64,000 nucleotides of DNA, taken from the NCBI GenBank assembly GCA_964036155.1, contig OZ038422.1, positions 74,113,201 to 74,177,200 on the forward strand. The letters run 5' to 3'. Source of the DNA: Diploscapter coronatus. Lineage: Eukaryota > Nematoda > Chromadorea > Rhabditida > Rhabditidae. The position numbers were made by a program, and so were the translations under genes. Shown here in pieces: positions 1-41,470 of this stretch. Under the pieces are notes generated by a model that ran no database searches, was not told the origin of the DNA, and saw only the letters and a program-made list of their open reading frames with translations. The stretch's first letter is position 1, and every line of letters starts with the position of its first letter.

Positions 1-3000
1 GAAAGATATTCGGTAATTTCAAGGATTGTTATGAAAATCTCACCTCCTTCTTCAGTTTGTCGGCTTCGGCCTTGGATTTGGCGTCCTGCTGAAATCAGTG
101 GGTCGTATTTTTCACAATGCAATTCTAAATCACTCACGTCTTTCTTCGCCTTCTCGGCCTTCTCGGCTTCGGCCTTGGTCTTCTCAGCCTCGGCCTTGGT
201 CTTCTCAGCCTCGGCCTTGGCCTTGGCTTCTTCCTGAAAGACATTCGTTGATTTCAAGGAACGATTTAGAAATCTCACCTCCTTCTTCAGTTTGTCGGCT
301 TCGGCCTTGGCCTTGGCTTCTTCCTGAAAGACATTCGTTGATTTCAAGGAACGATTTAGAAATCTCACCTCCTTCTTCAGTTTGTCGGCCTCGGCCTTGG
401 ATTTGGCGTCCTGCTGAAATCAGTGGGTCGTATTTTTCACAATGCAATTCTAAATCACTCACGTCTTTCTTCGCCTTCTCGGCCTTCTCGGCTTCGGCCT
501 TGGTCTTCTCAGCCTCGGCCTTGGTCTTCTCAGCCTCGGCCTTGGCCTTGGCTTCTTCCTGAAAGATATTCGGTAATTTCAAGGATTGTTATGAAAATCT
601 CACCTCCTTCTTCAGTTTGTCGGCTTCGGCCTTGGATTTGGCGTCCTGCTGAAATCAGTGGGTCGTATTTTTCACAATGCAATTCTAAATCACTCACGTC
701 TTTCTTCGCCTTCTCGGTCTTCTCAGCCTCGGCCTTGGTCTTCTCAGCCTCGGCCTTGGCCTTGGCTTCTTCCTGAAAGACATTCGTTGATTTCAAGGAA
801 CGATTTAGAAATCTCACCTCCTTCTTCAGTTTGTCGGCCTCGGCCTTGGATTTGGCGTCCTGCTGAAATCAGTGAGTCGTATTTTTCACAATGCAATTCT
901 AAATCACTCACGTCTTTCTTCGCCTTCTCGGCCTTCTCAGCCTCGGCCTTGGTCTTCTCAGCCTCGGCCTTGGCCTTGGCTTCTTCCTGAAAGACATTCG
1001 TTGATTTCAAGGAACGATTTAGAAATCTCACCTCCTTCTTCAGTTTGTCGGCTTCGGCCTTGGCCTTGGCTTCTTCCTGAAAGACATTCGTTGATTTCAA
1101 GGAACGATTTAGAAATCTCACCTCCTTCTTCAGTTTGTCGGCCTCGGCCTTGGATTTGGCGTCCTGCTGAAATCAGTGGGTCGTATTTTTCACAATGCAA
1201 TTCTAAATCACTCACGTCTTTCTTCGCCTTCTCGGCCTTCTCGGCTTCGGCCTTGGTCTTCTCAGCCTCGGCCTTGGTCTTCTCAGCCTCGGCCTTGGCC
1301 TTGGCTTCTTCCTGAAAGATATTCGGTAATTTCAAGGATTGTTATGAAAATCTCACCTCCTTCTTCAGTTTGTCGGCCTCGGCCTTGGATTTGGCGTCCT
1401 GCTGAAATCAGTGAGTCGTATTTTTCACAATGCAATTCTAAATCACTCACGTCTTTCTTCGCCTTCTCGGCCTTCTCGGCCTCGGCCTTGGTCTTCTCAG
1501 CCTCGGCCTTGGCCTTGGCTTCTTCCTGAAAGACATTCGTTGATTTCAAGGAACGATTTAGAAATCTCACCTCCTTCTTCAGTTTGTCGGCCTCGGCCTT
1601 GGATTTGGCGTCCTGCTGAAATCAGTGAGTCGTATTTTTCAAATGTGGAAATTGTTATATCACTCACGTCTTTCTTCGCCTTCTCGGCCTTCTCAGCCTC
1701 GGCCTTGGTCTTCTCAGCCTCGGCCTTGGCCTTGGCTTCTTCCTGAAAGACATTCGTTGATTTCAAGGAACGATTTAGAAATCTCACCTCCTTCTTCAGT
1801 TTGTCGGCTTCGGCCTTGGCCTTGGCTTCTTCCTGAAAGACATTCGTTGATTTCAAGGAACGATTTAGAAATCTCACCTCCTTCTTCAGTTTGTCGGCTT
1901 CGGCCTTGGATTTGGCGTCCTGCTGAAATCAGTGGGTCGTATTTTTCACAATGCAATTCTAAATCACTCACGTCTTTCTTCGCCTTCTCGGCCTTCTCGG
2001 CTTCGGCCTTGGTCTTCTCAGCCTCGGCCTTGGTCTTCTCAGCCTCGGCCTTGGCCTTGGCTTCTTCCTGAAAGATATTCGGTAATTTCAAGGATTGTTA
2101 TGAAAATCTCACCTCCTTCTTCAGTTTGTCGGCTTCGGCCTTGGATTTGGCGTCCTGCTGAAATCAGTGGGTCGTATTTTTCACAATGCAATTCTAAATC
2201 ACTCACGTCTTTCTTCGCCTTCTCGGCCTTCTCGGCTTCGGCCTTGGTCTTCTCAGCCTCGGCCTTGGTCTTCTCAGCCTCGGCCTTGGCCTTGGCTTCT
2301 TCCTGAAAGACATTCGTTGATTTCAAGGAACGATTTAGAAATCTCACCTCCTTCTTCAGTTTGTCGGCTTCGGCCTTGGCCTTGGCTTCTTCCTGAAAGA
2401 CATTCGTTGATTTCAAGGAACGATTTAGAAATCTCACCTCCTTCTTCAGTTTGTCGGCCTCGGCCTTGGATTTGGCGTCCTGCTGAAATCAGTGGGTCGT
2501 ATTTTTCACAATGCAATTCTAAATCACTCACGTCTTTCTTCGCCTTCTCGGCCTTCTCGGCTTCGGCCTTGGTCTTCTCAGCCTCGGCCTTGGTCTTCTC
2601 AGCCTCGGCCTTGGCCTTGGCTTCTTCCTGAAAGATATTCGGTAATTTCAAGGATTGTTATGAAAATCTCACCTCCTTCTTCAGTTTGTCGGCCTCGGCC
2701 TTGGATTTGGCGTCCTGCTGAAATCAGTGAGTCGTATTTTTCACAATGCAATTCTAAATCACTCACGTCTTTCTTCGCCTTCTCGGCCTTCTCGGCCTCG
2801 GCCTTGGTCTTCTCAGCCTCGGCCTTGGCCTTGGCTTCTTCCTGAAAGACATTCGTTGATTTCAAGGAACGATTTAGAAATCTCACCTCCTTCTTCAGTT
2901 TGTCGGCCTCGGCCTTGGATTTGGCGTCCTGCTGAAATCAGTGAGTCGTATTTTTCAAATGTGGAAATTGTTATATCACTCACGTCTTTCTTCGCCTTCT

Positions 3001-6000
3001 CGGCCTTCTCAGCCTCGGCCTTGGTCTTCTCAGCCTCGGCCTTGGCCTTGGCTTCTTCCTGAAAGACATTCGTTGATTTCAAGGAACGATTTAGAAATCT
3101 CACCTCCTTCTTCAGTTTGTCGGCTTCGGCCTTGGATTTGGCGTCCTGCTGAAATCAGTGGGTCGTATTTTTCACAATGCAATTCTAAATCACTCACGTC
3201 TTTCTTCGCCTTCTCGGCCTTCTCGGCTTCGGCCTTGGTCTTCTCAGCCTCGGCCTTGGTCTTCTCAGCCTCGGCCTTGGCCTTGGCTTCTTCCTGAAAG
3301 ATATTCGGTAATTTCAAGGATTGTTATGAAAATCTCACCTCCTTCTTCAGTTTGTCGGCTTCGGCCTTGGATTTGGCGTCCTGCTGAAATCAGTGGGTCG
3401 TATTTTTCACAATGCAATTCTAAATCACTCACGTCTTTCTTCGCCTTCTCGGCCTTCTCGGCTTCGGCCTTGGTCTTCTCAGCCTCGGCCTTGGTCTTCT
3501 CAGCCTCGGCCTTGGCCTTGGCTTCTTCCTGAAAGACATTCGTTGATTTCAAGGAACGATTTAGAAATCTCACCTCCTTCTTCAGTTTGTCGGCCTCGGC
3601 CTTGGATTTGGCGTCCTGCTGAAATCAGTGGGTCGTATTTTTCACAATGCAATTCTAAATCACTCACGTCTTTCTTCGCCTTCTCGGCCTTCTCGGCTTC
3701 GGCCTTGGTCTTCTCAGCCTCGGCCTTGGTCTTCTCAGCCTCGGCCTTGGCCTTGGCTTCTTCCTGAAAGATATTCGGTAATTTCAAGGATTGTTATGAA
3801 AATCTCACCTCCTTCTTCAGTTTGTCGGCTTCGGCCTTGGATTTGGCGTCCTGCTGAAATCAGTGGGTCGTATTTTTCACAATGCAATTCTAAATCACTC
3901 ACGTCTTTCTTCGCCTTCTCGGTCTTCTCAGCCTCGGCCTTGGTCTTCTCAGCCTCGGCCTTGGTCTTCTCAGCCTCGGCCTTGGCCTTGGCTTCTTCCT
4001 GAAAGACATTCGTTGATTTCAAGGAACGATTTAGAAATCTCACCTCCTTCTTCAGTTTGTCGGCCTCGGCCTTGGATTTGGCGTCCTGCTGAAATCAGTG
4101 AGTCGTATTTTTCACAATGCAATTCTAAATCACTCACGTCTTTCTTCGCCTTCTCGGCCTTCTCAGCCTCGGCCTTGGTCTTCTCAGCCTCGGCCTTGGC
4201 CTTGGCTTCTTCCTGAAAGACATTCGTTGATTTCAAGGAACGATTTAGAAATCTCACCTCCTTCTTCAGTTTGTCGGCTTCGGCCTTGGATTTGGCGTCC
4301 TGCTGAAATCAGTGGGTCGTATTTTTCACAATGCAATTCTAAATCACTCACGTCTTTCTTCGCCTTCTCGGCCTTCTCGGCTTCGGCCTTGGTCTTCTCA
4401 GCCTCGGCCTTGGTCTTCTCAGCCTCGGCCTTGGCCTTGGCTTCTTCCTGAAAGACATTCGTTGATTTCAAGGAACGATTTAGAAATCTCACCTCCTTCT
4501 TCAGTTTGTCGGCCTCGGCCTTGGATTTGGCGTCCTGCTGAAATCAGTGGGTCGTATTTTTCACAATGCAATTCTAAATCACTCACGTCTTTCTTCGCCT
4601 TCTCGGCCTTCTCGGCTTCGGCCTTGGTCTTCTCAGCCTCGGCCTTGGTCTTCTCAGCCTCGGCCTTGGCCTTGGCTTCTTCCTGAAAGATATTCGGTAA
4701 TTTCAAGGATTGTTATGAAAATCTCACCTCCTTCTTCAGTTTGTCGGCTTCGGCCTTGGATTTGGCGTCCTGCTGAAATCAGTGGGTCGTATTTTTCACA
4801 ATGCAATTCTAAATCACTCACGTCTTTCTTCGCCTTCTCGGTCTTCTCAGCCTCGGCCTTGGTCTTCTCAGCCTCGGCCTTGGTCTTCTCAGCCTCGGCC
4901 TTGGCCTTGGCTTCTTCCTGAAAGACATTCGTTGATTTCAAGGAACGATTTAGAAATCTCACCTCCTTCTTCAGTTTGTCGGCCTCGGCCTTGGATTTGG
5001 CGTCCTGCTGAAATCAGTGAGTCGTATTTTTCACAATGCAATTCTAAATCACTCACGTCTTTCTTCGCCTTCTCGGCCTTCTCAGCCTCGGCCTTGGTCT
5101 TCTCAGCCTCGGCCTTGGCCTTGGCTTCTTCCTGAAAGACATTCGTTGATTTCAAGGAACGATTTAGAAATCTCACCTCCTTCTTCAGTTTGTCGGCTTC
5201 GGCCTTGGATTTGGCGTCCTGCTGAAATCAGTGGGTCGTATTTTTCACAATGCAATTCTAAATCACTCACGTCTTTCTTCGCCTTCTCGGCCTTCTCAGC
5301 CTCGGCCTTGGTCTTCTCAGCCTCAGCCTCGGCCTTGGTCTTCTCAGCCTCAGCCTTGGCCTTGGCTTCTTCCTGAAAGATATTCGGTAATTTCAAGGAT
5401 TGTTATGAAAATCTCACCTCCTTCTTCAGTTTGTCGGCTTCGGCCTTGGATTTGGCGTCCTGCTGAAATCAGTGGGTCGTATTTTTCACAATGCAATTCT
5501 AAATCACTCACGTCTTTCTTCGCCTTCTCGGCCTTCTCGGCTTCGGCCTTGGTCTTCTCAGCCTCGGCCTTGGTCTTCTCAGCCTCGGCCTTGGCCTTGG
5601 CTTCTTCCTGAAAGATATTCGGTAATTTCAAGGATTGTTATGAAAATCTCACCTCCTTCTTCAGTTTGTCGGCTTCGGCCTTGGATTTGGCGTCCTGCTG
5701 AAATCAGTGGGTCGTATTTTTCACAATGCAATTCTAAATCACTCACGTCTTTCTTCGCCTTCTCGGCCTTCTCAGCCTCGGCCTTGGTCTTCTCAGCCTC
5801 GGCCTTGGCCTTGGCTTCTTCCTGAAAGACATTCGTTGATTTCAAGGAACGATTTAGAAATCTCACCTCCTTCTTCAGTTTGTCGGCCTCGGCCTTGGTC
5901 TTCTCAGCCTCGGCCTTGGCCTTGGCTTCTTCCTGAAAGACATTCGGTAATTTCAAGGATTGTTATGAAAATCTCACCTCCTTCTTCAGTTTGTCGGCTT

Positions 6001-9000
6001 CAGCCTTGGATTTGGCGTCCTGCTGAAATCAGTGGGTCGTATTTTTCACAATGCAATTCTAAATCACTCACGTCTTTCTTCGCCTTCTCGGCCTTCTCAG
6101 CCTCGGCCTTGGTCTTCTCAGCCTCAGCCTTGGCCTTGGCTTCTTCCTGAAAGATATTCGGTAATTTCAAGGATTGTTATGAAAATCTCACCTCCTTCTT
6201 CAGTTTGTCGGCCTCGGCCTTGGATTTGGCGTCCTGCTGAAATCAGTGAGTCGTATTTTTCAAATGTGGAAATTGTTATATCACTCACGTCTTTCTTCGC
6301 CTTCTCGGCCTTCTCAGCCTCGGCCTTGGTCTTCTCAGCCTCGGCCTTGGCCTTGGCTTCTTCCTGAAAGACATTCGTTGATTTCAAGGAACGATTTAGA
6401 AATCTCACCTCCTTCTTCAGTTTGTCGGCCTCGGCCTTGGATTTGGCGTCCTGCTGAAATCAGTGAGTCGTATTTTTCACAATGCAATTCTAAATCACTC
6501 ACGTCTTTCTTCGCCTTCTCGGCCTTCTCAGCCTCGGCCTTGGTCTTCTCAGCCTCGGCCTTGGCCTTGGCTTCTTCCTGAAAGACATTCGTTGATTTCA
6601 AGGAACGATTTAGAAATCTCACCTCCTTCTTCAGTTTGTCGGCTTCGGCCTTGGCCTTGGCTTCTTCCTGAAAGACATTCGTTGATTTCAAGGAACGATT
6701 TAGAAATCTCACCTCCTTCTTCAGTTTGTCGGCCTCGGCCTTGGATTTGGCGTCCTGCTGAAATCAGTGGGTCGTATTTTTCACAATGCAATTCTAAATC
6801 ACTCACGTCTTTCTTCGCCTTCTCGGTCTTCTCAGCCTCGGCCTTGGTCTTCTCAGCCTCGGCCTTGGCCTTGGCTTCTTCCTGAAAGACATTCGTTGAT
6901 TTCAAGGAACGATTTAGAAATCTCACCTCCTTCTTCAGTTTGTCGGCCTCGGCCTTGGATTTGGCGTCCTGCTGAAATCAGTGGGTCGTATTTTTCACAA
7001 TGCAATTCTAAATCACTCACGTCTTTCTTCGCCTTCTCGGTCTTCTCAGCCTCGGCCTTGGTCTTCTCAGCCTCGGCCTTGGCCTTGGCTTCTTCCTGAA
7101 AGACATTCGTTGATTTCAAGGAACGATTTAGAAATCTCACCTCCTTCTTCAGTTTGTCGGCTTCGGCCTTGGCCTTGGCTTCTTCCTGAAAGACATTCGT
7201 TGATTTCAAGGAACGATTTAGAAATCTCACCTCCTTCTTCAGTTTGTCGGCCTCGGCCTTGGATTTGGCGTCCTGCTGAAATCAGTGGGTCGTATTTTTC
7301 ACAATGCAATTCTAAATCACTCACGTCTTTCTTCGCCTTCTCGGCCTTCTCGGCTTCGGCCTTGGTCTTCTCAGCCTCGGCCTTGGTCTTCTCAGCCTCG
7401 GCCTTGGCCTTGGCTTCTTCCTGAAAGATATTCGGTAATTTCAAGGATTGTTATGAAAATCTCACCTCCTTCTTCAGTTTGTCGGCTTCGGCCTTGGATT
7501 TGGCGTCCTGCTGAAATCAGTGGGTCGTATTTTTCACAATGCAATTCTAAATCACTCACGTCTTTCTTCGCCTTCTCGGTCTTCTCAGCCTCGGCCTTGG
7601 TCTTCTCAGCCTCGGCCTTGGCCTTGGCTTCTTCCTGAAAGACATTCGTTGATTTCAAGGAACGATTTAGAAATCTCACCTCCTTCTTCAGTTTGTCGGC
7701 TTCGGCCTTGGATTTGGCGTCCTGCTGAAATCAGTGGGTCGTATTTTTCACAATGCAATTCTAAATCACTCACGTCTTTCTTCGCCTTCTCGGCCTTCTC
7801 GGCTTCGGCCTTGGTCTTCTCAGCCTCGGCCTTGGTCTTCTCAGCCTCGGCCTTGGCCTTGGCTTCTTCCTGAAAGACATTCGTTGATTTCAAGGAACGA
7901 TTTAGAAATCTCACCTCCTTCTTCAGTTTGTCGGCCTCGGCCTTGGATTTGGCGTCCTGCTGAAATCAGTGAGTCGTATTTTTCACAATGCAATTCTAAA
8001 TCACTCACGTCTTTCTTCGCCTTCTCGGCCTTCTCGGCTTCGGCCTTGGTCTTCTCAGCCTCGGCCTTGGTCTTCTCAGCCTCGGCCTTGGCCTTGGCTT
8101 CTTCCTGAAAGATATTCGGTAATTTCAAGGATTGTTATGAAAATCTCACCTCCTTCTTCAGTTTGTCGGCTTCGGCCTTGGATTTGGCGTCCTGCTGAAA
8201 TCAGTGGGTCGTATTTTTCACAATGCAATTCTAAATCACTCACGTCTTTCTTCGCCTTCTCGGCCTTCTCGGCTTCGGCCTTGGTCTTCTCAGCCTCGGC
8301 CTTGGTCTTCTCAGCCTCGGCCTTGGCCTTGGCTTCTTCCTGAAAGATATTCGGTAATTTCAAGGATTGTTATGAAAATCTCACCTCCTTCTTCAGTTTG
8401 TCGGCTTCGGCCTTGGATTTGGCGTCCTGCTGAAATCAGTGGGTCGTATTTTTCACAATGCAATTCTAAATCACTCACGTCTTTCTTCGCCTTCTCGGTC
8501 TTCTCAGCCTCGGCCTTGGTCTTCTCAGCCTCGGCCTTGGCCTTGGCTTCTTCCTGAAAGACATTCGTTGATTTCAAGGAACGATTTAGAAATCTCACCT
8601 CCTTCTTCAGTTTGTCGGCTTCGGCCTTGGATTTGGCGTCCTGCTGAAATCAGTGGGTCGTATTTTTCACAATGCAATTCTAAATCACTCACGTCTTTCT
8701 TCGCCTTCTCGGCCTTCTCGGCTTCGGCCTTGGTCTTCTCAGCCTCAGCCTTGGCCTTGGCTTCTTCCTGAAAGATATTCGGTAATTTCAAGGATTGTTA
8801 TGAAAATCTCACCTCCTTCTTCAGTTTGTCGGCTTCGGCCTTGGCCTTGGCTTCTTCCTGAAAGACATTCGTTGATTTCAAGGAACGATTTAGAAATCTC
8901 ACCTCCTTCTTCAGTTTGTCGGCCTCGGCCTTGGATTTGGCGTCCTGCTGAAATCAGTGAGTCGTATTTTTCAAATGTGGAAATTGTTATATCACTCACG

Positions 9001-12000
9001 TCTTTCTTCGCCTTCTCGGCCTTCTCAGCCTCGGCCTTGGTCTTCTCAGCCTCGGCCTTGGCCTTGGCTTCTTCCTGAAAGACATTCGTTGATTTCAAGG
9101 AACGATTTAGAAATCTCACCTCCTTCTTCAGTTTGTCGGCCTCGGCCTTGGTCTTCTCAGCCTCGGCCTTGGCCTTGGCTTCTTCCTGAAAGACATTCGG
9201 TAATTTCAAGGATTGTTATGAAAATCTCACCTCCTTCTTCAGTTTGTCGGCCTCGGCCTTGGATTTGGCGTCCTGCTGAAATCAGTGGGTCGTATTTTTC
9301 ACAATGCAATTCTAAATCACTCACGTCTTTCTTCGCCTTCTCGGCCTTCTCGGCTTCGGCCTTGGTCTTCTCAGCCTCGGCCTTGGCCTTGGCTTCTTCC
9401 TGAAAGACATTCGTTGATTTCAAGGAACGATTTAGAAATCTCACCTCCTTCTTCAGTTTGTCGGCCTCGGCCTTGGATTTGGCGTCCTGCTGAAATCAGT
9501 GAGTCGTATTTTTCACAATGCAATTCTAAATCACTCACGTCTTTCTTCGCCTTCTCGGCCTTCTCAGCCTCGGCCTTGGTCTTCTCAGCCTCGGCCTTGG
9601 CCTTGGCTTCTTCCTGAAAGACATTCGTTGATTTCAAGGAACGATTTAGAAATCTCACCTCCTTCTTCAGTTTGTCGGCCTCGGCCTTGGTCTTCTCAGC
9701 CTCGGCCTTGGCCTTGGCTTCTTCCTGAAAGACATTCGGTAATTTCAAGGATTGTTATGAAAATCTCACCTCCTTCTTCAGTTTGTCGGCTTCAGCCTTG
9801 GATTTGGCGTCCTGCTGAAATCAGTGGGTCGTATTTTTCACAATGCAATTCTAAATCACTCACGTCTTTCTTCGCCTTCTCGGCCTTCTCGGCCTCGGCC
9901 TTGGTCTTCTCAGCCTCGGCCTTGGCCTTGGCTTCTTCCTGAAAGACATTTGTTGATTTCAAGGAACGATTTAGAAATCTCACCTCCTTCTTCAGTTTGT
10001 CGGCCTCGGCCTTGGATTTGGCGTCCTGCTGAAATCAGTGAGTCGTATTTTTCACAATGCAATTCTAAATCACTCACGTCTTTCTTCGCCTTCTCGGCCT
10101 TCTCAGCCTCGGCCTTGGTCTTCTCAGCCTCAGCCTTGGCCTTGGCTTCTTCCTGAAAGATATTCGGTAATTTCAAGGATTGTTATGAAAATCTCACCTC
10201 CTTCTTCAGTTTGTCGGCTTCAGCCTTGGATTTGGCGTCCTGCTGAAATCAGTGAGTCGTATTTTTCACAATGCAATTCTAAATCACTCACGTCTTTCTT
10301 CGCCTTCTCGGCCTTCTCAGCCTCGGCCTTGGTCTTCTCAGCCTCAGCCTTGGCCTTGGCTTCTTCCTGAAAGATATTCGGTAATTTCAAGGATTGTTAT
10401 GAAAATCTCACCTCCTTCTTCAGTTTGTCGGCTTCAGCCTTGGATTTGGCGTCCTGCTGAAATCAGTGAGTCGTATTTTTCACAATGCAATTCTAAATCA
10501 CTCACGTCTTTCTTCGCCTTCTCGGCCTTCTCGGCCTCGGCCTTGGTCTTCTCAGCCTCGGCCTTGGCCTTGGCTTCTTCCTGAAAGACATTCGTTGATT
10601 TCAAGGAACGATTTAGAAATCTCACCTCCTTCTTCAGTTTGTCGGCCTCGGCCTTGGATTTGGCGTCCTGCTGAAATCAGTGAGTCGTATTTTTCACAAT
10701 GCAATTCTAAATCACTCACGTCTTTCTTCGCCTTCTCGGCCTTCTCGGCCTCGGCCTTGGTCTTCTCAGCCTCGGCCTTGGCCTTGGCTTCTTCCTGAAA
10801 GATATTCGGTAATTTCAAGGATTGTTATGAAAATCTCACCTCCTTCTTCAGTTTGTCGGCTTCAGCCTTGGATTTGGCGTCCTGCTGAAATCAGTGAGTC
10901 GTATTTTTCACAATGCAATTCTAAATCACTCACGTCTTTCTTCGCCTTCTCGGCCTTCTCAGCCTCGGCCTTGGTCTTCTCAGCCTCAGCCTTGGCCTTG
11001 GCTTCTTCCTGAAAGATATTCGGTAATTTCAAGGATTGTTATGAAAATCTCACCTCCTTCTTCAGTTTGTCGGCCTCGGCCTTGGATTTGGCGTCCTGCT
11101 GAAATCAGTGAGTCGTATTTTTCAAATGTGGAAATTGTTATATCACTCACGTCTTTCTTCGCCTTCTCGGCCTTCTCAGCCTCGGCCTTGGTCTTCTCAG
11201 CCTCGGCCTTGGCCTTGGCTTCTTCCTGAAAGACATTCGTTGATTTCAAGGAACGATTTAGAAATCTCACCTCCTTCTTCAGTTTGTCGGCCTCGGCCTT
11301 GGATTTGGCGTCCTGCTGAAATCAGTGAGTCGTATTTTTCACAATGCAATTCTAAATCACTCACGTCTTTCTTCGCCTTCTCGGCCTTCTCGGCTTCGGC
11401 CTTGGTCTTCTCAGCCTCAGCCTTGGCCTTGGCTTCTTCCTGAAAGATATTCGGTAATTTCAAGGATTGTTATGAAAATCTCACCTCCTTCTTCAGTTTG
11501 TCGGCTTCGGCCTTGGCCTTGGCTTCTTCCTGAAAGACATTCGTTGATTTCAAGGAACGATTTAGAAATCTCACCTCCTTCTTCAGTTTGTCGGCTTCGG
11601 CCTTGGATTTGGCGTCCTGCTGAAATCAGTGGGTCGTATTTTTCACAATGCAATTCTAAATCACTCACGTCTTTCTTCGCCTTCTCGGCCTTCTCGGCTT
11701 CGGCCTTGGTCTTCTCAGCCTCAGCCTTGGCCTTGGCTTCTTCCTGAAAGATATTCGGTAATTTCAAGGATTGTTATGAAAATCTCACCTCCTTCTTCAG
11801 TTTGTCGGCTTCGGCCTTGGCCTTGGCTTCTTCCTGAAAGACATTCGTTGATTTCAAGGAACGATTTAGAAATCTCACCTCCTTCTTCAGTTTGTCGGCT
11901 TCGGCCTTGGATTTGGCGTCCTGCTGAAATCAGTGGGTCGTATTTTTCACAATGCAATTCTAAATCACTCACGTCTTTCTTCGCCTTCTCGGCCTTCTCG

Positions 12001-15000
12001 GCTTCGGCCTTGGTCTTCTCAGCCTCAGCCTTGGCCTTGGCTTCTTCCTGAAAGATATTCGGTAATTTCAAGGATTGTTATGAAAATCTCACCTCCTTCT
12101 TCAGTTTGTCGGCTTCGGCCTTGGCCTTGGCTTCTTCCTGAAAGACATTCGTTGATTTCAAGGAACGATTTAGAAATCTCACCTCCTTCTTCAGTTTGTC
12201 GGCTTCGGCCTTGGATTTGGCGTCCTGCTGAAATCAGTGGGTCGTATTTTTCACAATGCAATTCTAAATCACTCACGTCTTTCTTCGCCTTCTCGGCCTT
12301 CTCGGCCTCGGCCTTGGCCTTGGCTTCTTCCTGAAAGACATTCGTTGATTTCAAGGAACGATTTAGAAATCTCACCTCCTTCTTCAGTTTGTCGGCCTCG
12401 GCCTTGGATTTGGCGTCCTGCTGAAATCAGTGAGTCGTATTTTTCAAATGTGGAAATTGTTATATCACTCACGTCTTTCTTCGCCTTCTCGGCCTTCTCG
12501 GCCTCGGCCTTGGTCTTCTCAGCCTCGGCCTTGGCCTTGGCTTCTTCCTGAAAGATATTCGGTAATTTCAAGGATTGTTATGAAAATCTCACCTCCTTCT
12601 TCAGTTTGTCGGCTTCAGCCTTGGATTTGGCGTCCTGCTGAAATCAGTGAGTCGTATTTTTCACAATGCAATTCTAAATCACTCACGTCTTTCTTCGCCT
12701 TCTCGGCCTTCTCAGCCTCGGCCTTGGTCTTCTCAGCCTCAGCCTTGGCCTTGGCTTCTTCCTGAAAGATATTCGGTAATTTCAAGGATTGTTATGAAAA
12801 TCTCACCTCCTTCTTCAGTTTGTCGGCCTCGGCCTTGGATTTGGCGTCCTGCTGAAATCAGTGAGTCGTATTTTTCAAATGTGGAAATTGTTATATCACT
12901 CACGTCTTTCTTCGCCTTCTCGGCCTTCTCAGCCTCGGCCTTGGTCTTCTCAGCCTCGGCCTTGGCCTTGGCTTCTTCCTGAAAGACATTCGTTGATTTC
13001 AAGGAACGATTTAGAAATCTCACCTCCTTCTTCAGTTTGTCGGCCTCGGCCTTGGATTTGGCGTCCTGCTGAAATCAGTGAGTCGTATTTTTCACAATGC
13101 AATTCTAAATCACTCACGTCTTTCTTCGCCTTCTCGGCCTTCTCGGCTTCGGCCTTGGTCTTCTCAGCCTCAGCCTTGGCCTTGGCTTCTTCCTGAAAGA
13201 TATTCGGTAATTTCAAGGATTGTTATGAAAATCTCACCTCCTTCTTCAGTTTGTCGGCTTCGGCCTTGGCCTTGGCTTCTTCCTGAAAGACATTCGTTGA
13301 TTTCAAGGAACGATTTAGAAATCTCACCTCCTTCTTCAGTTTGTCGGCTTCGGCCTTGGATTTGGCGTCCTGCTGAAATCAGTGGGTCGTATTTTTCACA
13401 ATGCAATTCTAAATCACTCACGTCTTTCTTCGCCTTCTCGGCCTTCTCGGCTTCGGCCTTGGTCTTCTCAGCCTCAGCCTTGGCCTTGGCTTCTTCCTGA
13501 AAGATATTCGGTAATTTCAAGGATTGTTATGAAAATCTCACCTCCTTCTTCAGTTTGTCGGCTTCGGCCTTGGCCTTGGCTTCTTCCTGAAAGACATTCG
13601 TTGATTTCAAGGAACGATTTAGAAATCTCACCTCCTTCTTCAGTTTGTCGGCTTCGGCCTTGGATTTGGCGTCCTGCTGAAATCAGTGGGTCGTATTTTT
13701 CACAATGCAATTCTAAATCACTCACGTCTTTCTTCGCCTTCTCGGCCTTCTCGGCTTCGGCCTTGGTCTTCTCAGCCTCAGCCTTGGCCTTGGCTTCTTC
13801 CTGAAAGATATTCGGTAATTTCAAGGATTGTTATGAAAATCTCACCTCCTTCTTCAGTTTGTCGGCTTCGGCCTTGGCCTTGGCTTCTTCCTGAAAGACA
13901 TTCGTTGATTTCAAGGAACGATTTAGAAATCTCACCTCCTTCTTCAGTTTGTCGGCTTCGGCCTTGGATTTGGCGTCCTGCTGAAATCAGTGGGTCGTAT
14001 TTTTCACAATGCAATTCTAAATCACTCACGTCTTTCTTCGCCTTCTCGGCCTTCTCGGCCTCGGCCTTGGCCTTGGCTTCTTCCTGAAAGACATTCGTTG
14101 ATTTCAAGGAACGATTTAGAAATCTCACCTCCTTCTTCAGTTTGTCGGCCTCGGCCTTGGATTTGGCGTCCTGCTGAAATCAGTGAGTCGTATTTTTCAA
14201 ATGTGGAAATTGTTATATCACTCACGTCTTTCTTCGCCTTCTCGGCCTTCTCGGCCTCGGCCTTGGTCTTCTCAGCCTCGGCCTTGGCCTTGGCTTCTTC
14301 CTGAAAGATATTCGGTAATTTCAAGGATTGTTATGAAAATCTCACCTCCTTCTTCAGTTTGTCGGCTTCAGCCTTGGATTTGGCGTCCTGCTGAAATCAG
14401 TGAGTCGTATTTTTCACAATGCAATTCTAAATCACTCACGTCTTTCTTCGCCTTCTCGGCCTTCTCAGCCTCGGCCTTGGTCTTCTCAGCCTCAGCCTTG
14501 GCCTTGGCTTCTTCCTGAAAGATATTCGGTAATTTCAAGGATTGTTATGAAAATCTCACCTCCTTCTTCAGTTTGTCGGCCTCGGCCTTGGATTTGGCGT
14601 CCTGCTGAAATCAGTGAGTCGTATTTTTCAAATGTGGAAATTGTTATATCACTCACGTCTTTCTTCGCCTTCTCGGCCTTCTCAGCCTCGGCCTTGGTCT
14701 TCTCAGCCTCGGCCTTGGCCTTGGCTTCTTCCTGAAAGACATTCGTTGATTTCAAGGAACGATTTAGAAATCTCACCTCCTTCTTCAGTTTGTCGGCCTC
14801 GGCCTTGGATTTGGCGTCCTGCTGAAATCAGTGAGTCGTATTTTTCACAATGCAATTCTAAATCACTCACGTCTTTCTTCGCCTTCTCGGCCTTCTCGGC
14901 TTCGGCCTTGGTCTTCTCAGCCTCAGCCTTGGCCTTGGCTTCTTCCTGAAAGATATTCGGTAATTTCAAGGATTGTTATGAAAATCTCACCTCCTTCTTC

Positions 15001-17120
15001 AGTTTGTCGGCTTCGGCCTTGGCCTTGGCTTCTTCCTGAAAGACATTCGTTGATTTCAAGGAACGATTTAGAAATCTCACCTCCTTCTTCAGTTTGTCGG
15101 CTTCGGCCTTGGATTTGGCGTCCTGCTGAAATCAGTGGGTCGTATTTTTCACAATGCAATTCTAAATCACTCACGTCTTTCTTCGCCTTCTCGGCCTTCT
15201 CGGCTTCGGCCTTGGTCTTCTCAGCCTCAGCCTTGGCCTTGGCTTCTTCCTGAAAGATATTCGGTAATTTCAAGGATTGTTATGAAAATCTCACCTCCTT
15301 CTTCAGTTTGTCGGCTTCGGCCTTGGCCTTGGCTTCTTCCTGAAAGACATTCGTTGATTTCAAGGAACGATTTAGAAATCTCACCTCCTTCTTCAGTTTG
15401 TCGGCTTCGGCCTTGGATTTGGCGTCCTGCTGAAATCAGTGGGTCGTATTTTTCACAATGCAATTCTAAATCACTCACGTCTTTCTTCGCCTTCTCGGCC
15501 TTCTCGGCTTCGGCCTTGGTCTTCTCAGCCTCAGCCTTGGCCTTGGCTTCTTCCTGAAAGATATTCGGTAATTTCAAGGATTGTTATGAAAATCTCACCT
15601 CCTTCTTCAGTTTGTCGGCTTCGGCCTTGGCCTTGGCTTCTTCCTGAAAGACATTCGTTGATTTCAAGGAACGATTTAGAAATCTCACCTCCTTCTTCAG
15701 TTTGTCGGCTTCGGCCTTGGATTTGGCGTCCTGCTGAAATCAGTGGGTCGTATTTTTCACAATGCAATTCTAAATCACTCACGTCTTTCTTCGCCTTCTC
15801 GGCCTTCTCGGCCTCGGCCTTGGCCTTGGCTTCTTCCTGAAAGACATTCGTTGATTTCAAGGAACGATTTAGAAATCTCACCTCCTTCTTCAGTTTGTCG
15901 GCCTCGGCCTTGGATTTGGCGTCCTGCTGAAATCAGTGAGTCGTATTTTTCAAATGTGGAAATTGTTATATCACTCACGTCTTTCTTCGCCTTCTCGGCC
16001 TTCTCGGCCTCGGCCTTGGTCTTCTCAGCCTCGGCCTTGGCCTTGGCTTCTTCCTGAAAGATATTCGGTAATTTCAAGGATTGTTATGAAAATCTCACCT
16101 CCTTCTTCAGTTTGTCGGCTTCGGCCTTGGATTTGGCGTCCTGCTGAAATCAGTGGGTCGTATTTTTCACAATGCAATTCTAAATCACTCACGTCTTTCT
16201 TCGCCTTCTCGGTCTTCTCAGCCTCGGCCTTGGCCTTGGCTTCTTCCTGAAAGATATTCGGTAATTTCAAGGATTGTTATGAAAATCTCACCTCCTTCTT
16301 CAGTTTGTCGGCTTCGGCCTTGGACTTGGCATCCTGCTGAAATCAGTGGGTCGTATTTTTCACAATGCAATTCTAAATCACTCACGTCTTTCTTCGCCTT
16401 CTCGGCTTCGGCCTTAGCCTTGGCCTCTTCCTGAAAGACATTCGGTAATTTCAAGGATCGACTTAGAAATCTCACCTCCTTCTTCAGTTTGTCAGCCTCG
16501 GCCTTGGATTTGGCGTCCTGCTGAAATCAGTGGGTCGTATTTTTCACAATGCAATTCTAAATCACTCACGTCTTTCTTCGCCTTCTCGGCCTTCTCAGCT
16601 TCAGCCTTGGTCTTCTCGGCTTCGGCCTTGGCCTTGGCTTCTTCCTGAAAGACATTCGGTAATTTCAAAGATCGATTTAGAAATCTCACCTCCTTCTTCA
16701 GTTTGTCAGCCTCGGCCTTGGATTTGGCGTCCTGCTGAAATCAGTGGGTCGTATTTTTCAAATGTGGAAATTGTTAAATCACTCACGTCTTTCTTCGCCT
16801 TCTCGGCCTTCTCGGCTTCGGCCTTGACCTTGGCTTCTTCCTGAAAGATATTCGGTAATTTCAAGGATCGACTTAGAAATCTCACCTCCTTCTTCAGTTT
16901 GTCAGCCTCGGCCTTGGATTTGGCATCCTGCTGAAATCAGTGGGTCGTATTTTTCACAATGCAATTCTAAATCACTCACGTCTTTCTTCGCCTTCTCGGC
17001 CTTCTCAGCTTCAGCCTTGGTCTTCTCGGCTTCGGCCTTGGCCTTGGCTTCTTCAGCCTTGGTCTTGGCTTCTTCCTGAAAGATATTCGGTAATTTCAAA
17101 GATCGATTTAGAAATCTCAC
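1..17120 (-). CDS. ttn-1: Titin coiled-coil region: about 160 micro-exons in a tandem array, partial at the left
   Basis: Each unit has exon Q (45 nt, QDAKSKAEADKLKKE), a 45-nt intron A, exon E (54, 75 or 96 nt: EEAKAKAEAE + 0-2 copies of KTKAEAE + KAEKAKKD) and intron B (49 or 52 nt). Example at the left edge: exon Q 44..88, intron B 89..137, exon E 138..233, intron A 234..278. At the right edge: exon E 16980..17075, intron B 16931..16979, exon Q 16886..16930, exon E 16787..16840. Nineteen units carry an extra 45- or 66-nt exon (EEAKAKAEADKLKKE or one heptad longer) and another intron A. All exons are phase 0. The product is a long Ala/Glu/Lys helix, TolA-like in composition, roughly 3000 residues in this window. 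Alternative: a non-coding satellite. I reject that because splice sites and frame are kept throughout. Confidence 0.8.
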
Positions 17121-20100
17121 CTCCTTCTTCAGTTTGTCGGCCTCATCAACTTTTTTCTGCTCTTCTATTTTCTTCTGGTCATCAATCTGAATTATTGAAA
17201 TGATATTTCTTGGTAGCGATGCACGCTTTCATGATATTTCGTAATCGCCTAATTACAAATTATCTTTACCTTCTTCTGTTTTGCTTCATCTACTCCTCGA
17301 GCTTCATCTTCACTCGATTTTTCCTAAATTTCGTATTTCACTTGTTAACTCATTTTCTCGCTCTACTAGCATTTAGCGTTTTACCTACGTATTATTAGCT
17401 CTCATGCTATGCTTGCCATTTGAATTTGCTATCGTTAATTTGAGTATAATATTGTAATAATAAATTGTTTATGGCATTTTCTCAAAGTTATCTATTCTTA
17501 AAGCTTTAATATTATAGATTTAAATTTTTTTAGACTGCCGAGATTTGATAAAGTAGTCATGTAACCACCAGACAATCGTATAGATCCTAGATAAGGTTGG
17601 GCAAGATCTTTTATAATATCGTTCTCATGAGGTTTCTTCTGGTGGCTACCTAGATCTGCTACTTTTCCAAATTGATTTTAAGTGATTCTGCATGCACTTA
17701 ACTCAAAATTGAAATGAAAAAGAACTTTTATTAGAAAGCTTCTAAATTATTCCACAGCACACAACTAAATTCTAAAATCACTACAAACGCCTATTCTAAT
17801 TTTCACAAGCGCTGGGTGCCTTCGTCTGAAATTACCTGCTCCAACTTGGCGACTTTTTCCATAACATCAACCTTTTCATCATCGTCTTTCAGTAATTGCA
17901 TCAATTCTTCCTGACTCATTTCACCTACATCTGTTTGCAAGTCACCGCTTGGGCCCTCAGATAATTTCCTACGCCTTTGTTTTGGCGCTTTGATATTTAG
18001 AGAAATGGCTTCAAAATGATCAGTGATGAGGTCAATTTCCAGTCCTGAACTATCGTCAGTCCTCTTGAACTCCGAGCTGATAGACACTTCAACAGAGTTC
18101 ACATCTGTTTTTGATGCTATTTCTTGATCCCTAGAAGAATCGATACCCGAATCTTGTGTTCCATCAATTTTTTGTTCTGATTTTGATTCGATTTTTCCAC
18201 TCGGCTGGTCTATCGATGGTTCCGGGACAATTTCCTGTTTCTCTTGAATTGTTGGTTCTGATTTTCTTCGAGGAGCAGATTTTATGTTCATTGATACGCT
18301 TTCGAAAATGTCTGCGAGAAGCTCAGCTTCTAGTGAGAAGCTCGATGGAGCATCATTGCTGAAGCTTAGGTCGACTTGGACTGCATTTCGGGTTTCTGAT
18401 AATGACAATTGCTCTTGAATTTTGAAAGAATCGTCCGTCGATGAATACAGCTGTTTGATATCCTCTTTGCTGCTTTCAATTTGTTGCTGATCTAATAACT
18501 GTTGAGGCTGACCTTCAACTGGTTGTGATTGATCAATTTGTTCATTCTTTGAGTCACTTGGCAGTGGCTCTGCCTTTCCTCGGTCGGATTTTCGAGGTGT
18601 TGATTTCAATGAGAGGATCATCGATTCAAAGATGTCGGTTTGAAGATCAACTTCCAGTCCTATCATTGATTCTAGCCTTCGGAATGACAATTCGATTGAC
18701 ACGTCTTGCAAGTCTTGCTGAGATTTTTCAACGTCATCCATTCTTTCGAGTTGCTGTTGGTCGATGATAAATTGTTCGCTGACCGTTCCACTCTCACTTG
18801 GCATCGAGTCTGCCATTCCGGAATCATCCATTCGTCCAATCTGTTGCTGCTCTAATAGTTGTTGAGGCTGATCATCACTGGGTTTGTCACTGATTTTCCC
18901 ACTATCACTTGGCAAAGATTCAACTTTCACCGGCTCCTCGGCCTTCTTGGATTCCTCAACTTTCACTGGTTCCTCGGCCTTCTTGGGCTCTTCGACTTTC
19001 GCTTTGGTTGGCTGCGATTTCAATGAAATCGATACAGCTTCGAAGATATCCACCAACAAATCAACTTCCAGACCTAATTGGCTCTCATCGTGTTTGAATT
19101 GTAAATCGACGATGACATCGCTGATCTGTTCTTGAGAGATGCTTTCAGAAATTTGAATTTCCTCAACTTTCACCGGTTCCTCGGCCTTCTTGGGCTCTTC
19201 GATTTTCGAGGGTTCCTCGGCCTTCTTGGATTCCTCAACTTTCACCGGTTCCTCGGCCTTCTTGGATTCCTCGACTTTCACCGGTTCCTCGGCCTTCTTG
19301 GGCTCTTCGATTTTCGAGGGTTCCTCGGCCTTCTTGGGCTCTTCGATTTTCGAGGGTTCCTCGGCCTTCTTGGATTCCTCAACTTTCACCGGTTCCTCGG
19401 CCTTCTTGGATTCCTCAACTTTCACCGGTTCCTCGGCCTTCTTGGGCTCTTCGATTTTCGAGGGTTCCTCGATCTTCTTGGATTCCTCAACTTTCACCGG
19501 TTCCTCGACCTTCTTGGATTCCTCGACTTTCACCGGTTCCTCAGCCTTCTTGGGCTCTTCGATTTTCGAGGGTTCCTCGGCCTTCTTGGATTCCTCAACT
19601 TTCACCGGCTCCTCGGCCTTCTTGGATTCCTCAACTTTCACCGGTTCCTCGGCCTTCTTGGATTCCTCAACTTTCACCGGTTCCTCGGCCTTCTTGGATT
19701 CCTCAACTTTCACCGGTTCCTCGGCCTTCTTGGGCTCTTCGATTTTCGAGGGTTCCTCGATCTTCTTGGATTCCTCAACTTTCACCGGTTCCTCGACCTT
19801 CTTGGATTCCTCGACTTTCACCGGTTCCTCGGCCTTCTTGGGTTCCTCAACTTTCACCGGTTCCTCGACCTTCTTGGATTCCTCGACTTTCACCGGTTCC
19901 TCGACCTTCTTGGATTCCTCGACTTTCACCGGTTCCTCGGCCTTCTTGGGCTCTTCGATTTTCGAGGGTTCCTCGGCCTTCTTGGGCTCTTCGATTTTCG
20001 AGGGTTCCTCGGCCTTCTTGGATTCCTCAACTTTCACCGGTTCCTCGGCCTTCTTGGATTCCTCAACTTTCACCGGTTCCTCGACCTTCTTGGATTCCTC

Positions 20101-23100
20101 GACTTTCACCGGTTCCTCGACCTTCTTGGATTCCTCGACTTTCACCGGTTCCTCGACCTTCTTGGATTCCTCGACTTTCACCGGTTCCTCGGCCTTCTTG
20201 GGCTCTTCGATTTTCGAGGGTTCCTCGGCCTTCTTGGGCTCTTCGATTTTCGAGGGTTCCTCGGCCTTCTTGGATTCCTCAACTTTCACCGGTTCCTCGG
20301 CCTTCTTGGATTCCTCAACTTTCACCGGTTCCTCGGCCTTCTTGGGCTCTTCGATTTTCGAGGGTTCCTCGGCCTTCTTGGATTCCTCAACTTTCACCGG
20401 TTCCTCGGCCTTCTTGGATTCCTCAACTTTCACCGGTTCCTCGGCCTTCTTGGATTCCTCAACTTTCACCGGTTCCTCGGCCTTCTTGGATTCCTCAACT
20501 TTCACCGGCTCCTCGGCCTTCTTGGGCTCTTCGATTTTCGCTTTGGTTGGCTGCGATTTCAATGAAATCGATACAGCTTCGAAGATATCCACCAACAAAT
20601 CAACTTCCAGACCTAATTGGCTCTCATCGTGTTTGAATTGTAAATCGACGATGACATCGCTGATCTGTTCTTGAGAGATGCTTTCAGAAATTTGAATTTC
20701 CTCAACTTTCACCGGTTCCTCAGCCTTCTTGGGTTCCTCAACTTTCACCGGTTCCTCGGCCTTCTTGGATTCCTCAACTTTCACCGGTTCCTCGGCCTTC
20801 TTGGATTCCTCAACTTTCACCGGTTCCTCGGCCTTCTTGGATTCCTCAACTTTCACTGGTTCCTCGGCCTTCTTGGGCTCTTCGATTTTCGCTTTGGTTG
20901 GCTGCGATTTCAATGAAATCGATACAGCTTCGAAGATATCCACCAACAAATCAACTTCCAGACCTAATTGGCTCTCATCGTGTTTGAATTGTAAATCGAC
21001 GATGACATCGCTGATCTGTTCTTGAGAGATGCTTTCAGAAATTTGAATTTCCTCAACTTTCACCGGTTCCTCAGCCTTCTTGGGTTCCTCAACTTTCACC
21101 GGTTCCTCGGCCTTCTTGGGCTCTTCGATTTTCGAGGGTTCCTCGGCCTTCTTGGGCTCTTCGATTTTCGCTTTGGTTGGCTGCGATTTCAATGAAATCG
21201 ATACAGCTTCGAAGATATCCACCAACAAATCAACTTCCAGACCTAATTGGCTCTCATCGTGTTTGAATTGTAAATCGACGATGACATCGCTGATCTGTTC
21301 TTGAGAGATGCTTTCAGAAATTTGAATTTCCTCAACTTTCACCGGTTCCTCAGCCTTCTTGGGTTCCTCAACTTTCACCGGTTCCTCGGCCTTCTTGGAT
21401 TCCTCAACTTTCACCGGTTCCTCGGCCTTCTTGGATTCCTCAACTTTCACCGGTTCCTCGGCCTTCTTGGATTCCTCAACTTTCACTGGTTCCTCGGCCT
21501 TCTTGGGCTCTTCGATTTTCGCTTTGGTTGGCTGCGATTTCAATGAAATCGATACAGCTTCGAAGATATCCACCAACAAATCAACTTCCAGACCTAATTG
21601 GCTCTCATCGTGTTTGAATTGTAAATCGACGATGACATCGCTGATCTGTTCTTGAGAGATGCTTTCAGAAATTTGAATTTCCTCAACTTTCACCGGTTCC
21701 TCAGCCTTCTTGGGTTCCTCAACTTTCACCGGTTCCTCGGCCTTCTTGGGCTCTTCGATTTTCGAGGGTTCCTCGGCCTTCTTGGGCTCTTCGATTTTCG
21801 CTTTGGTTGGCTGCGATTTCAATGAAATCGATACAGCTTCGAAGATATCCACCAACAAATCAACTTCCAGACCTAATTGGCTCTCATCGTGTTTGAATTG
21901 TAAATCGACGATGACATCGCTGATCTGTTCTTGAGAGATGCTTTCAGAAATTTGAATTTCCTCAACTTTCACCGGTTCCTCAGCCTTCTTGGGTTCCTCA
22001 ACTTTCACCGGTTCCTCGGCCTTCTTGGGCTCTTCGATTTTCGAGGGTTCCTCGGCCTTCTTGGGCTCTTCGATTTTCGCTTTGGTTGGCTGCGATTTCA
22101 ATGAAATCGATACAGCTTCGAAGATATCCACCAACAAATCAACTTCCAGACCTAATTGGCTCTCATCGTGTTTGAATTGTAAATCGACGATGACATCGCT
22201 GATCTGTTCTTGAGAGATGCTTTCAGAAATTTGAATTTCCTCAACTTTCACCGGTTCCTCAGCCTTCTTGGGTTCCTCAACTTTCACCGGTTCCTCGGCC
22301 TTCTTGGATTCCTCAACTTTCACCGGTTCCTCGGCCTTCTTGGATTCCTCAACTTTCACCGGTTCCTCGGCCTTCTTGGATTCCTCAACTTTCACCGGCT
22401 CCTCGGCCTTCTTGGATTCCTCAACTTTCACCGGCTCCTCGGCCTTCTTGGGCTCTTCGACTTTCGCTTTGGTTGGCTGCGATTTCAATGAAATCGATAC
22501 AGCTTCGAAGATATCCACCAACAAATCAACTTCCAGACCTAATTGGCTCTCATCGTGTTTGAATTGTAAATCGACGATGACATCGCTGATCTGTTCTTGA
22601 GAGATGCTTTCAGAAATTTGAATTTCCTCAACTTTCACCGGTTCCTCGGCCTTCTTGGGCTCTTCGATTTTCGAGGGTTCCTCGACCTTCTTGGATTCCT
22701 CAACTTTCACCGGTTCCTCGACCTTCTTGGATTCCTCGACTTTCACCGGCTCCTCGGCCTTCTTGGATTCCTCGACTTTCACCGGTTCCTCGGCCTTCTT
22801 GGATTCCTCAACTTTCACCGGCTCCTCGGCCTTCTTGGATTCCTCAACTTTCACCGGCTCCTCGGCCTTCTTGGATTCCTCAACTTTCACCGGCTCCTCG
22901 GCCTTCTTGGGCTCTTCGATTTTCGAGGGTTCCTCGACCTTCTTGGATTCCTCGACTTTCACCGGTTCCTCGGCCTTCTTGGATTCCTCGACTTTCACCG
23001 GTTCCTCGGCCTTCTTGGATTCCTCGACTTTCACCGGCTCCTCGGCCTTCTTGGATTCCTCGACTTTCACCGGTTCCTCGACCTTCTTGGATTCCTCGAC

Positions 23101-41100: not shown

Positions 41101-41470
41101 TCTGTTCGTCCTGGCGAATCGGAAGGAAGAATTCATCCGAATCGAGACTAGCCACGCGAATTGAGCATTCAGTCGACACTGAACCGTGCTCGTTGACTGC
41201 CTCGCATCGGTAGTTCGCAATTTCTGTCGGCTGGTTGATGACTTGCAGAATTGAGACCATCGAATTTTCGGTGAGGATGTGGTAGTTGCTGAAAACTTAT
41301 TTTATCACTTATTGAAAACAACCTTAAAAAGGTACTAAAAATCATTAGAAATGTGATGAAGTTCACTTCCTGTATTGTTTTTTTTTGCGAAATATTGAAA
41401 AGAAACTTTTGTGATAAGGAAAAAATTGGTAGTCTTGGATGATCCATTTTTGTTTGTAAATAATAATGAG

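What the first reader, a model, noticed from the sequence alone, without database searches (positions are those of the whole stretch)
1..17186. About 160 near-identical micro-exons and mini-introns in one gene
Seventy tandem units each carry two or more tiny phase-0 exons (45-102 nt) and introns of 45 and 49/52 nt, all with nearly identical splice sites. The introns were amplified together with the exons. Half or less of the array is coding, yet the frame survives throughout. How a spliceosome pairs the right sites among about 160 copies, and whether skipping is frequent, is an open and unusual question. Any skipped exon leaves the frame intact, so a population of rods of varying length is possible.
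Basis: partly seen in the sequence, partly recalled or inferred. Interest (0 to 1): 0.92.

Follow-up and report, generated by a model that had tools for sequence, protein, structure and literature searches.

The report
Hundreds of copied mini-introns in titin
In what is likely the giant muscle-protein (titin) gene of a one-chromosome parthenogenetic nematode, 26,000 bases of tandem repeats are predicted to be spliced from 245 small coding pieces separated by 246 near-identical short introns, and the partner chromosome carries its own, differently built version of the same array.

Summary
The window has 159 array introns (45/49/52 nt) and 159 complete exons (45-102 nt), but it cuts the array. 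On this chromosome copy (C1) the main array has 246 introns over 26.4 kb; the homologous copy (C2) has 195 over 23.4 kb. All 245 and 194 internal exons are phase 0 and open, encoding 4,954 and 4,769 residues; no long frame is open without splicing. Variation is mostly at third codon positions and in intron middles. The two main arrays share no exact intron sequence (C1: 49/52-nt introns ending TTTCAG; C2: 48-nt ending TTTAG), so each homologue homogenised its own. Intron probes match only this locus: not introners. Titin-type Ig/Fn3 domains flank the array: likely a TTN-1-like gene of Diploscapter. A second array has GC-AG donors in 34 of 35 (C1) and 8 of 11 (C2) introns. Sites likely pair by intron definition: true partners lie 45-52 nt apart, the nearest one-exon skip needs at least 135 nt. 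Every single-exon skip keeps frame; most retentions do not. No RNA was available, so splicing and skipping are inferred. 'Micro-exon' and 'half or less coding' are corrected: small exons, 56% coding.

The parts
1..17120 (-). Part of the main exon-intron array inside the window: 159 introns (45/49/52 nt) alternating with 159 complete exons; continues 9.3 kb beyond window position 1 to C1:74103907
17121..17186 (-). Single-copy first exon of the array (IDDQKKIEEQKKVDEADKLKKE), phase 0, also present on C2
   Evidence: sequence and C1/C2 edge comparison
17076..17120 (-). First 45-nt array intron (type a), an edge variant
89..137 (-). Last complete 49-nt array intron (type b) inside the window
17187..17835 (-). 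Predicted single-copy intron joining the PEVK-like exon to the array (GTAATTT...AATTCAG), 94.3% identical between homologues
   Evidence: sequence
17836..27339 (-). PEVK-like open frame with SKKAEEPVKVEE 12-residue tandem repeats and no intron needed (upper end is the stop-to-stop bound)
32771..41296 (-). Large open frame with repeated 'GLDIGL..DEY..V' modules and an 8-residue TQPVETPS tandem array at 38070-38725
47300..52141 (-). Open frame with Ig I-set domains; relatives are nematode Ig/titin proteins including one of C. elegans
52982..54040 (-). Open frame ending in an Ig I-set domain
57472..59103 (-). Open frame with Ig I-set domains

Best explanation
The array is likely the rod-coding section of a nematode titin (TTN-1-like) gene, in which tandem copying has likely multiplied two short introns together with their exons, and the pre-mRNA is predicted to be spliced step by step across each tiny intron (intron definition). 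Shown by sequence: 246 intron-like elements on one homologue and 195 on the other, phase-0 open exons throughout, mostly third-position variation, constant intron ends, and homologue-specific introns. Inferred: (1) each 45-52-nt intron is recognised as a unit, so the nearest donor-acceptor pair wins over skipping; (2) nearly all exons are included, giving a charged helix of about 4,800-5,000 residues (roughly 0.7 micrometre if fully helical); (3) occasional skipping is tolerated because it stays in frame, whereas most intron retention truncates the protein; (4) unequal exchange or conversion within each homologue keeps homogenising units, introns included, so whatever splice site sits in the winning unit spreads through the array, as with the TTTAG acceptor on C2 and the GC donors of the second array.
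For: All internal main-array exons phase 0 and open, spliced product 4,954 aa (C1) and 4,769 aa (C2) with no stop; no long unspliced frame. Segregating sites at codon positions 1/2/3: 7/5/32 of 127 each (C1), 10/6/30 of 183 each (C2); variable sites of the 45-nt intron lie at positions 10-37 (C1) and 10-35 (C2). In the main blocks GTGAG occurs 246 and 195 times, exactly once per intron and never in an exon. Exon lengths are all multiples of 3, intron lengths 45/48/49/52 are not. No exact intron type is shared between the main arrays; within-subfamily distance 0-1.1%, between homologues 8.5-11%. Intron probes match only this locus: 205 and 247 genome hits equal the local counts. Ig domains on the 5' side, relatives including a C. 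elegans Ig-like protein and Haemonchus 'TITIN'; Ig+Fn3 on the 3' side with titin as best solved match; kinase matches further 3' on the same strand on both homologues. Helix: opposite-charge excess at i,i+4 far above shuffles; AlphaFold2 model of a 32-aa exon is one helix, pLDDT 93.7. Short-intron effect on small exons in C. elegans (PMC8378409, passages).
Against: No transcript was available; splicing, inclusion rate and protein are all inferred. The intron-finding pattern fixed the first and last six or more bases, so constant ends are partly built in; what speaks for them is that no intron was missed inside a main block (exon lengths 45-102 and 45-150, none holding a leftover intron). On C2, 100 of 194 main-block exons contain an internal CAG, a possible competing acceptor; on C1 none of 245 do. 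The spliced-array protein (461 aa typed) found no relative at E<=1e-20 among 7,991 scored candidates, and an open frame about 48 kb 3' of the array found none at E<=0.001. Copies share ancestry, so variable sites are not independent. One continuous gene from the Ig exons to the kinase is likely, not proven. Species is inferred.
Confidence: 0.78

Rival explanations
1. Frequent stochastic exon skipping: identical sites pair at random and the gene makes a broad population of rod lengths.
For: All single skips keep frame (245 of 245; 194 of 194); exons under 51 nt are often skipped in general (PMC8378409, passage); on C2 100 of 194 exons hold an internal CAG; even 1% skipping per exon would leave only about 8% full-length (0.99^245, arithmetic).
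Against: True introns are 45-52 nt and the shortest skip is 135-138 nt; an unusually short intron relieved a C. elegans microexon of the need for PRP-40. Exons carry few GT to compete as donors (3 in 259 exons on C1, 14 in 204 on C2).
Confidence: 0.12
2. Introner-like mobile introns inserted many times into a repetitive exon.
For: Near-identical introns in many copies.
Against: Probes for both intron types match nowhere else in 169.7 Mb; exons around them are equally alike; introns sit at the same positions of the repeat and the two chromosome copies each have their own versions.
Confidence: 0.02
3. Non-coding satellite or dead array that is removed as one 26-kb intron.
For: No RNA evidence; tandem repeats expand readily; no protein relative found for the spliced array.
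Against: Frame intact in 439 of 439 internal main-array exons, third-position excess, the same exon-intron pattern on both homologues despite 8.5-11% intron divergence.
Confidence: 0.06
4. Copy number is an assembly artefact.
For: C1 has internal exact repeats up to 3,659 nt and near-exact blocks spaced 1,753 nt; reads were not available.
Against: 3-kb stretches are unique at 94% of positions on C1 and 100% on C2; chromosome-size contigs suggest long reads; the arrays differ between homologues rather than being copies of each other.
Confidence: 0.05

Closest known systems
Vertebrate TTN PEVK exons and the TTN/NEB segmental-duplication (triplicate) regions
   Same: Sarcomere giant genes; repeated exons amplified together with introns; copy number varies between people (PMC9109913 and PMC9142044, abstracts; PMC6469411, passages).
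   Different: There: eight exons repeated three times (NEB), or 81-116 PEVK exons found per mammal species by one program. Here: 246/195 introns of 45-52 nt of a few sequence types only, in one uninterrupted block.
C. elegans titin TTN-1 (Ig/Fn3, PEVK-like and coiled regions; architecture recalled)
   Same: The 47300-52141 frame has a C. elegans relative (41% identity over 54% of the query); PEVK-like and charged helical regions with Ig/Fn3 on both sides.
   Different: Whether C. elegans has an intron-bearing rod array could not be checked: its genome is not held, and full-length TTN-1 (size recalled) exceeds the length limit of the protein search.
Introner elements
   Same: Many near-identical introns.
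   Different: Introners insert into many genes across a genome (PMC9860276, abstract in the listing; a passage search found nothing more); these introns occur in one locus only.
C. elegans microexons and PRP-40
   Same: Small exons whose splicing depends on flanking intron length.
   Different: Microexons there are <=27 nt and enriched in neuronal genes (PMC8378409, passages); here exons of 45-150 nt with short introns throughout.

Membership tests
Nematode titin (TTN-1-like) | Ig I-set domains 5' of the array with nematode Ig/titin relatives | tested here: met
   (11 proteins at E<=0.001 among 7,987 scored; one named TITIN, one C. elegans Ig-like protein)
Nematode titin (TTN-1-like) | Ig and Fn3 domains 3' of the array, titin-like | tested here: met
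   (best solved match Titin, 8g4l)
Nematode titin (TTN-1-like) | C-terminal protein kinase in the same gene | tested here: inconclusive
Nematode titin (TTN-1-like) | PEVK-like elastic segment | tested here: inconclusive
   12-residue SKKAEEPVKVEE array, by composition only; no Pfam family over its cut-off
Spliceosomal introns | GT-AG ends, phase-consistent exons, variable middle | tested here: met
Spliceosomal introns | Removed from RNA | not testable with these tools
   no transcript data held
Intragenic tandem exon duplication | Introns amplified with exons, locus-restricted | tested here: met
Introner elements | Copies in multiple unrelated genes | tested here: not met
Micro-exons | Exon length <=27 nt | tested here: not met
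   shortest array exon 45 nt; definition from PMC8378409
Single alpha-helix / charged helical rod | i,i+4 opposite-charge pattern and helix prediction | tested here: met
   2,092 against -4 +- 42 in shuffles on C1; 32-aa exon. Paired coil not excluded: like charges recur at i,i+7

The most novel reading that the evidence does not exclude
Array turnover, not selection on splicing, writes the splice sites of this gene: each chromosome copy has spread its own site through about a hundred introns at once, including a weak GC donor now in 34 of 35 consecutive introns, and the gene survives because every skip stays in frame, so one asexual animal makes two allelic families of titin rods of different intron number and slightly varied length.
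Probability: 0.3. Interest if true: 0.88.

Novelty: new variant of a known kind. Interest (0 to 1): 0.74.

Why it matters
It is a natural multi-copy splicing experiment: hundreds of near-identical introns in one predicted transcript, with two allelic versions whose introns all differ in sequence and could be told apart in reads from one animal. It would allow direct measurement of per-intron skipping and retention, of how intron definition works near the minimum intron size, and of whether tandem homogenisation can drive poor splice sites (GC donors) through a gene. In a lineage reported to reproduce without hallmarks of meiotic recombination (PMC9071541, passage), though with some gene conversion suggested (up to 11% of the D. 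pachys genome homozygous; PMC7953838, passage), it shows repeat homogenisation within each homologue with no shared intron type between the two main arrays.

Tried and rejected
Introners: rejected by genome-wide probes. Unspliced coding: rejected, at least 108 stops in every frame of each main array. Conventional micro-exons: rejected on length. Frame kept by chance: rejected. GT alternatives for the GC donors of the second array: none in frame with an intron of 35 nt or more in 34 of 34 (C1) and 8 of 8 (C2) units. Hydrophobic heptad coiled coil: no 3.5-residue period among the strongest in the spliced rod, but like charges recur at i,i+7, so single helix against paired coil is left open. One search used a length setting too strict for the second intron type; its list of 'bad' exons is an artefact and one search replaces it. 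Protein search with the spliced array gave nothing at E<=1e-20, and with an open frame about 48 kb 3' of the array nothing at E<=0.001; that frame and the 1,899-aa frame at C1:74086970-74092666 had no Pfam family. Literature: searches for tandem exon arrays with near-identical introns showed no comparable case in their listings (one search found 0 papers, one search listed microarray papers); only open-licence papers are held, so this does not show absence from print.
Full report
WHERE IT IS. The window is C1:74113201-74177200 of a 169.7-Mb genome in three contigs: C1 87.7 Mb, C2 82.0 Mb and, by subtraction, one of about 13 kb (mitochondrion-sized; inference). C1 and C2 are collinear: the listed single-copy pieces 3' of the array match at mostly 91-95% (only the first 150 long rows, minus those in the array, were printed) and the large open frames on the 5' side correspond in order. 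They read as homologues. Two homologous chromosome-size contigs totalling 170 Mb fit Diploscapter (D. coronatus 170.5 Mb, D. pachys 157.7 Mb, one chromosome pair, parthenogenetic: PMC9071541, passages; PMC11258339, passages). The species is inferred, not shown.

OBSERVATION. On the minus strand the array alternates exon A (QDAKSKAEADKLKKE, 45 nt), intron a (45 nt, GTGAGAT...TTTCAG), exon B (EEAKAKAEAEK...KAKKD and variants, 45-102 nt on C1, up to 150 nt on C2) and intron b (49 or 52 nt on C1, GTGAGTGAT...GATTTCAG), with some shorter a-a cycles on C1. The window holds 159 introns and 159 complete exons, 56.4% of the array being coding. The main block runs past the window edge: 246 introns at C1:74103907-74130320; on C2, 195 introns at 69259679-69283051. 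Smaller blocks of the same units lie further 3' (5 and 11 introns on C1, 4 and 8 on C2). One further 53-nt match on C1 (74099408) is not an array intron and is left out of these counts.

IS IT CODING AND SPLICED? All 245 (C1) and 194 (C2) internal main-array exons are phase 0 and open and join into products of 4,954 and 4,769 residues. Over all blocks, 259 of 262 (C1) and 204 of 206 (C2) gaps between detected introns are phase 0 and open; the five misses are gaps of 3.7-8.6 kb between blocks. Without splicing, each of the six frames has at least 108 stops and no open stretch exceeds 191 residues. Segregating sites fall at codon positions 1/2/3 as 7/5/32 (of 127 each) on C1 and 10/6/30 (of 183 each) on C2, counting exon classes with at least 4 copies; the 45-nt intron varies only at positions 10-37 (C1) or 10-35 (C2). 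A caution: the search pattern required the first and last six or more bases of each intron, so constancy there is partly imposed; but no intron was missed inside a main block, since GTGAG occurs exactly 246 and 195 times, never in an exon, and no exon holds a leftover intron. A simple test of central placement (0.0005 and 0.0008) is therefore only indicative. Exon lengths change only by multiples of three; intron b is 49/52 nt on C1 but 48 nt on C2, where its last codon would be an in-frame TAG. No RNA could be examined.

TWO HOMOLOGUES, TWO ARRAYS. In the main block no exact intron sequence is shared between C1 and C2 (8 and 3 distinct 45-nt types). Two intron-a subfamilies (a1, a2) occur on both homologues and so likely predate their separation, yet within each subfamily distances are 0-1.1% inside a homologue and 8.5-11% between them, against 5.7% in the single-copy intron just upstream (592 of 628 aligned bases identical, 25 gap columns). 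G at position 35 is in 97 of 98 main-block C2 introns, both subfamilies, and in none of 136 on C1. All 118 detected b introns on C1 end TTTCAG and all 104 on C2 end TTTAG (the pattern allowed only these two ends); the next three bases are CAG in 118 of 118 and 103 of 104 (one CAA), so a NAGNAG-like choice of one glutamine is possible. This reads as homogenisation within each homologue. Exon A differs by 1.7-1.9% within and 2.7% between homologues, and one exon type is shared. The array encodes nearly the same length on both copies (4,954 and 4,769 aa) although intron number differs by 51, while the neighbouring PEVK-like frame is 3,178 against 4,802 aa (stop to stop) and the second array 35 against 11 introns; a length constraint on the rod is an idea from one locus, not a test.

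SECOND ARRAY, GC DONORS. About 21-28 kb 3' of the main array lies another tandem array with mostly 132/135-nt exons (KTEVKPAETPAPTPVEQPPSGDDKGKKLTKRTPSQEKIAKPEEK and relatives) and 42-49-nt introns. The scan found 38 introns on C1 and 13 on C2; setting aside 3 and 2 flanking introns of unrelated sequence, 34 of 35 (C1) and 8 of 11 (C2) begin with GC, not GT, at the same boundary as the GT copies. All 37 and 12 exons between detected introns are phase 0 and open. No usable GT lies nearby. GC-AG introns are 0.6% of introns in C. elegans and 0.8% in Heterorhabditis (PMC5906903, passages). Together 297 (C1) and 218 (C2) array introns were counted in this predicted gene.

WHAT GENE. Ig I-set domains lie 5' of the array; the 47300-52141 frame has 11 relatives at E<=0.001 among 7,987 scored candidates; those named are nematode proteins except one marsupial one, and include one of C. 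elegans (41% identity over 54%) and a Haemonchus protein named TITIN. An Ig+Fn3 frame lies about 44 kb 3' of the main array, its best solved match being titin, and a kinase match lies further 3' on the same strand on both homologues (112 of 1,361 candidates scored). A PEVK-like 12-residue array adjoins it. The array joins single-copy exons in phase 0 on both sides. Two frames further 3' had no Pfam family and one of them no protein relative. I therefore read it as a TTN-1-like titin gene; the complete gene model was not built.

MECHANISM. Inferred: intron definition. The right acceptor is 45-52 nt from each donor; skipping one exon needs an intron of at least 135 nt (C1) or 138 nt (C2). In C. 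[quoted passage not shown] The exons are nearly free of GT (3 in 15,618 exonic bases on C1, 14 in 14,907 on C2), which follows from their E/A/K/D/T composition. Against a clean picture, 100 of 194 C2 main-block exons carry an internal CAG, C1 none of 245. Error tolerance is lopsided: a single skip is in frame in 245 of 245 and 194 of 194 cases, whereas a single retention is open and in frame in only 78 of 246 and 39 of 195. Even rare skipping adds up: 0.1% per exon would leave 78% full-length, 1% about 8% (arithmetic), so modest length variation is expected without any regulation. The product has an i,i+4 salt-bridge pattern and one exon is modelled as a helix: likely a long charged helical rod, single or paired.

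NOT INTRONERS, NOT OBVIOUSLY AN ARTEFACT. Probes for introns a and b with up to 3 mismatches hit the genome 247 and 205 times, exactly the local counts (144+103, 101+104). The longest exact repeat inside the array is 3,659 nt on C1 and 1,840 nt on C2, within reach of long reads; reads were not available.

VERDICT. A real and extreme case of intragenic tandem exon-plus-intron amplification, of the same kind as the NEB and TTN duplicated blocks in people (PMC9109913, PMC9142044, abstracts) but with hundreds of minimal introns and two separately homogenised alleles. Human TTN's 363 exons are recalled, not looked up; whether this gene exceeds them was not determined.

Noticed in passing
C1:74075786-74082438 and C2:69238259-69240462 (outside the window, same strand): Second tandem array of mostly 132/135-nt exons with 42-49-nt introns; 34 of 35 (C1) and 8 of 11 (C2) array introns start with GC instead of GT, after setting aside 3 and 2 flanking introns.
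   Followed up: partly
window 17836-27339: PEVK-like 12-residue tandem array in one open frame directly beside the intron-rich array; stop-to-stop frame 3,178 aa on C1 but 4,802 aa on C2.
   Followed up: partly
window 38070-38725: 24-nt tandem array (TQPVETPS) in the same predicted gene; the surrounding frame is 2,841 aa on C1 and 4,397 aa on C2.
   Followed up: no
window 22570-25875, plus strand: Antisense open frames up to 1,101 aa over the PEVK-like array, most simply a by-product of its codon composition.
   Followed up: no
window 11203-15827: Higher-order repeat: three near-identical blocks spaced 1,753 nt, giving the longest exact repeat (3,659 nt) on C1.
   Followed up: partly
C2:69259679-69283051: All 97 b introns of the C2 main block end TTTAG before CAG, against TTTCAG before CAG in all 110 of the C1 main block: a one-base acceptor difference present throughout each homologue's array.
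   Followed up: partly
C2 main-block exons: 100 of 194 exons carry an internal CAG (mostly GCAGA context) absent from C1, a possible competing acceptor on one homologue only.
   Followed up: no
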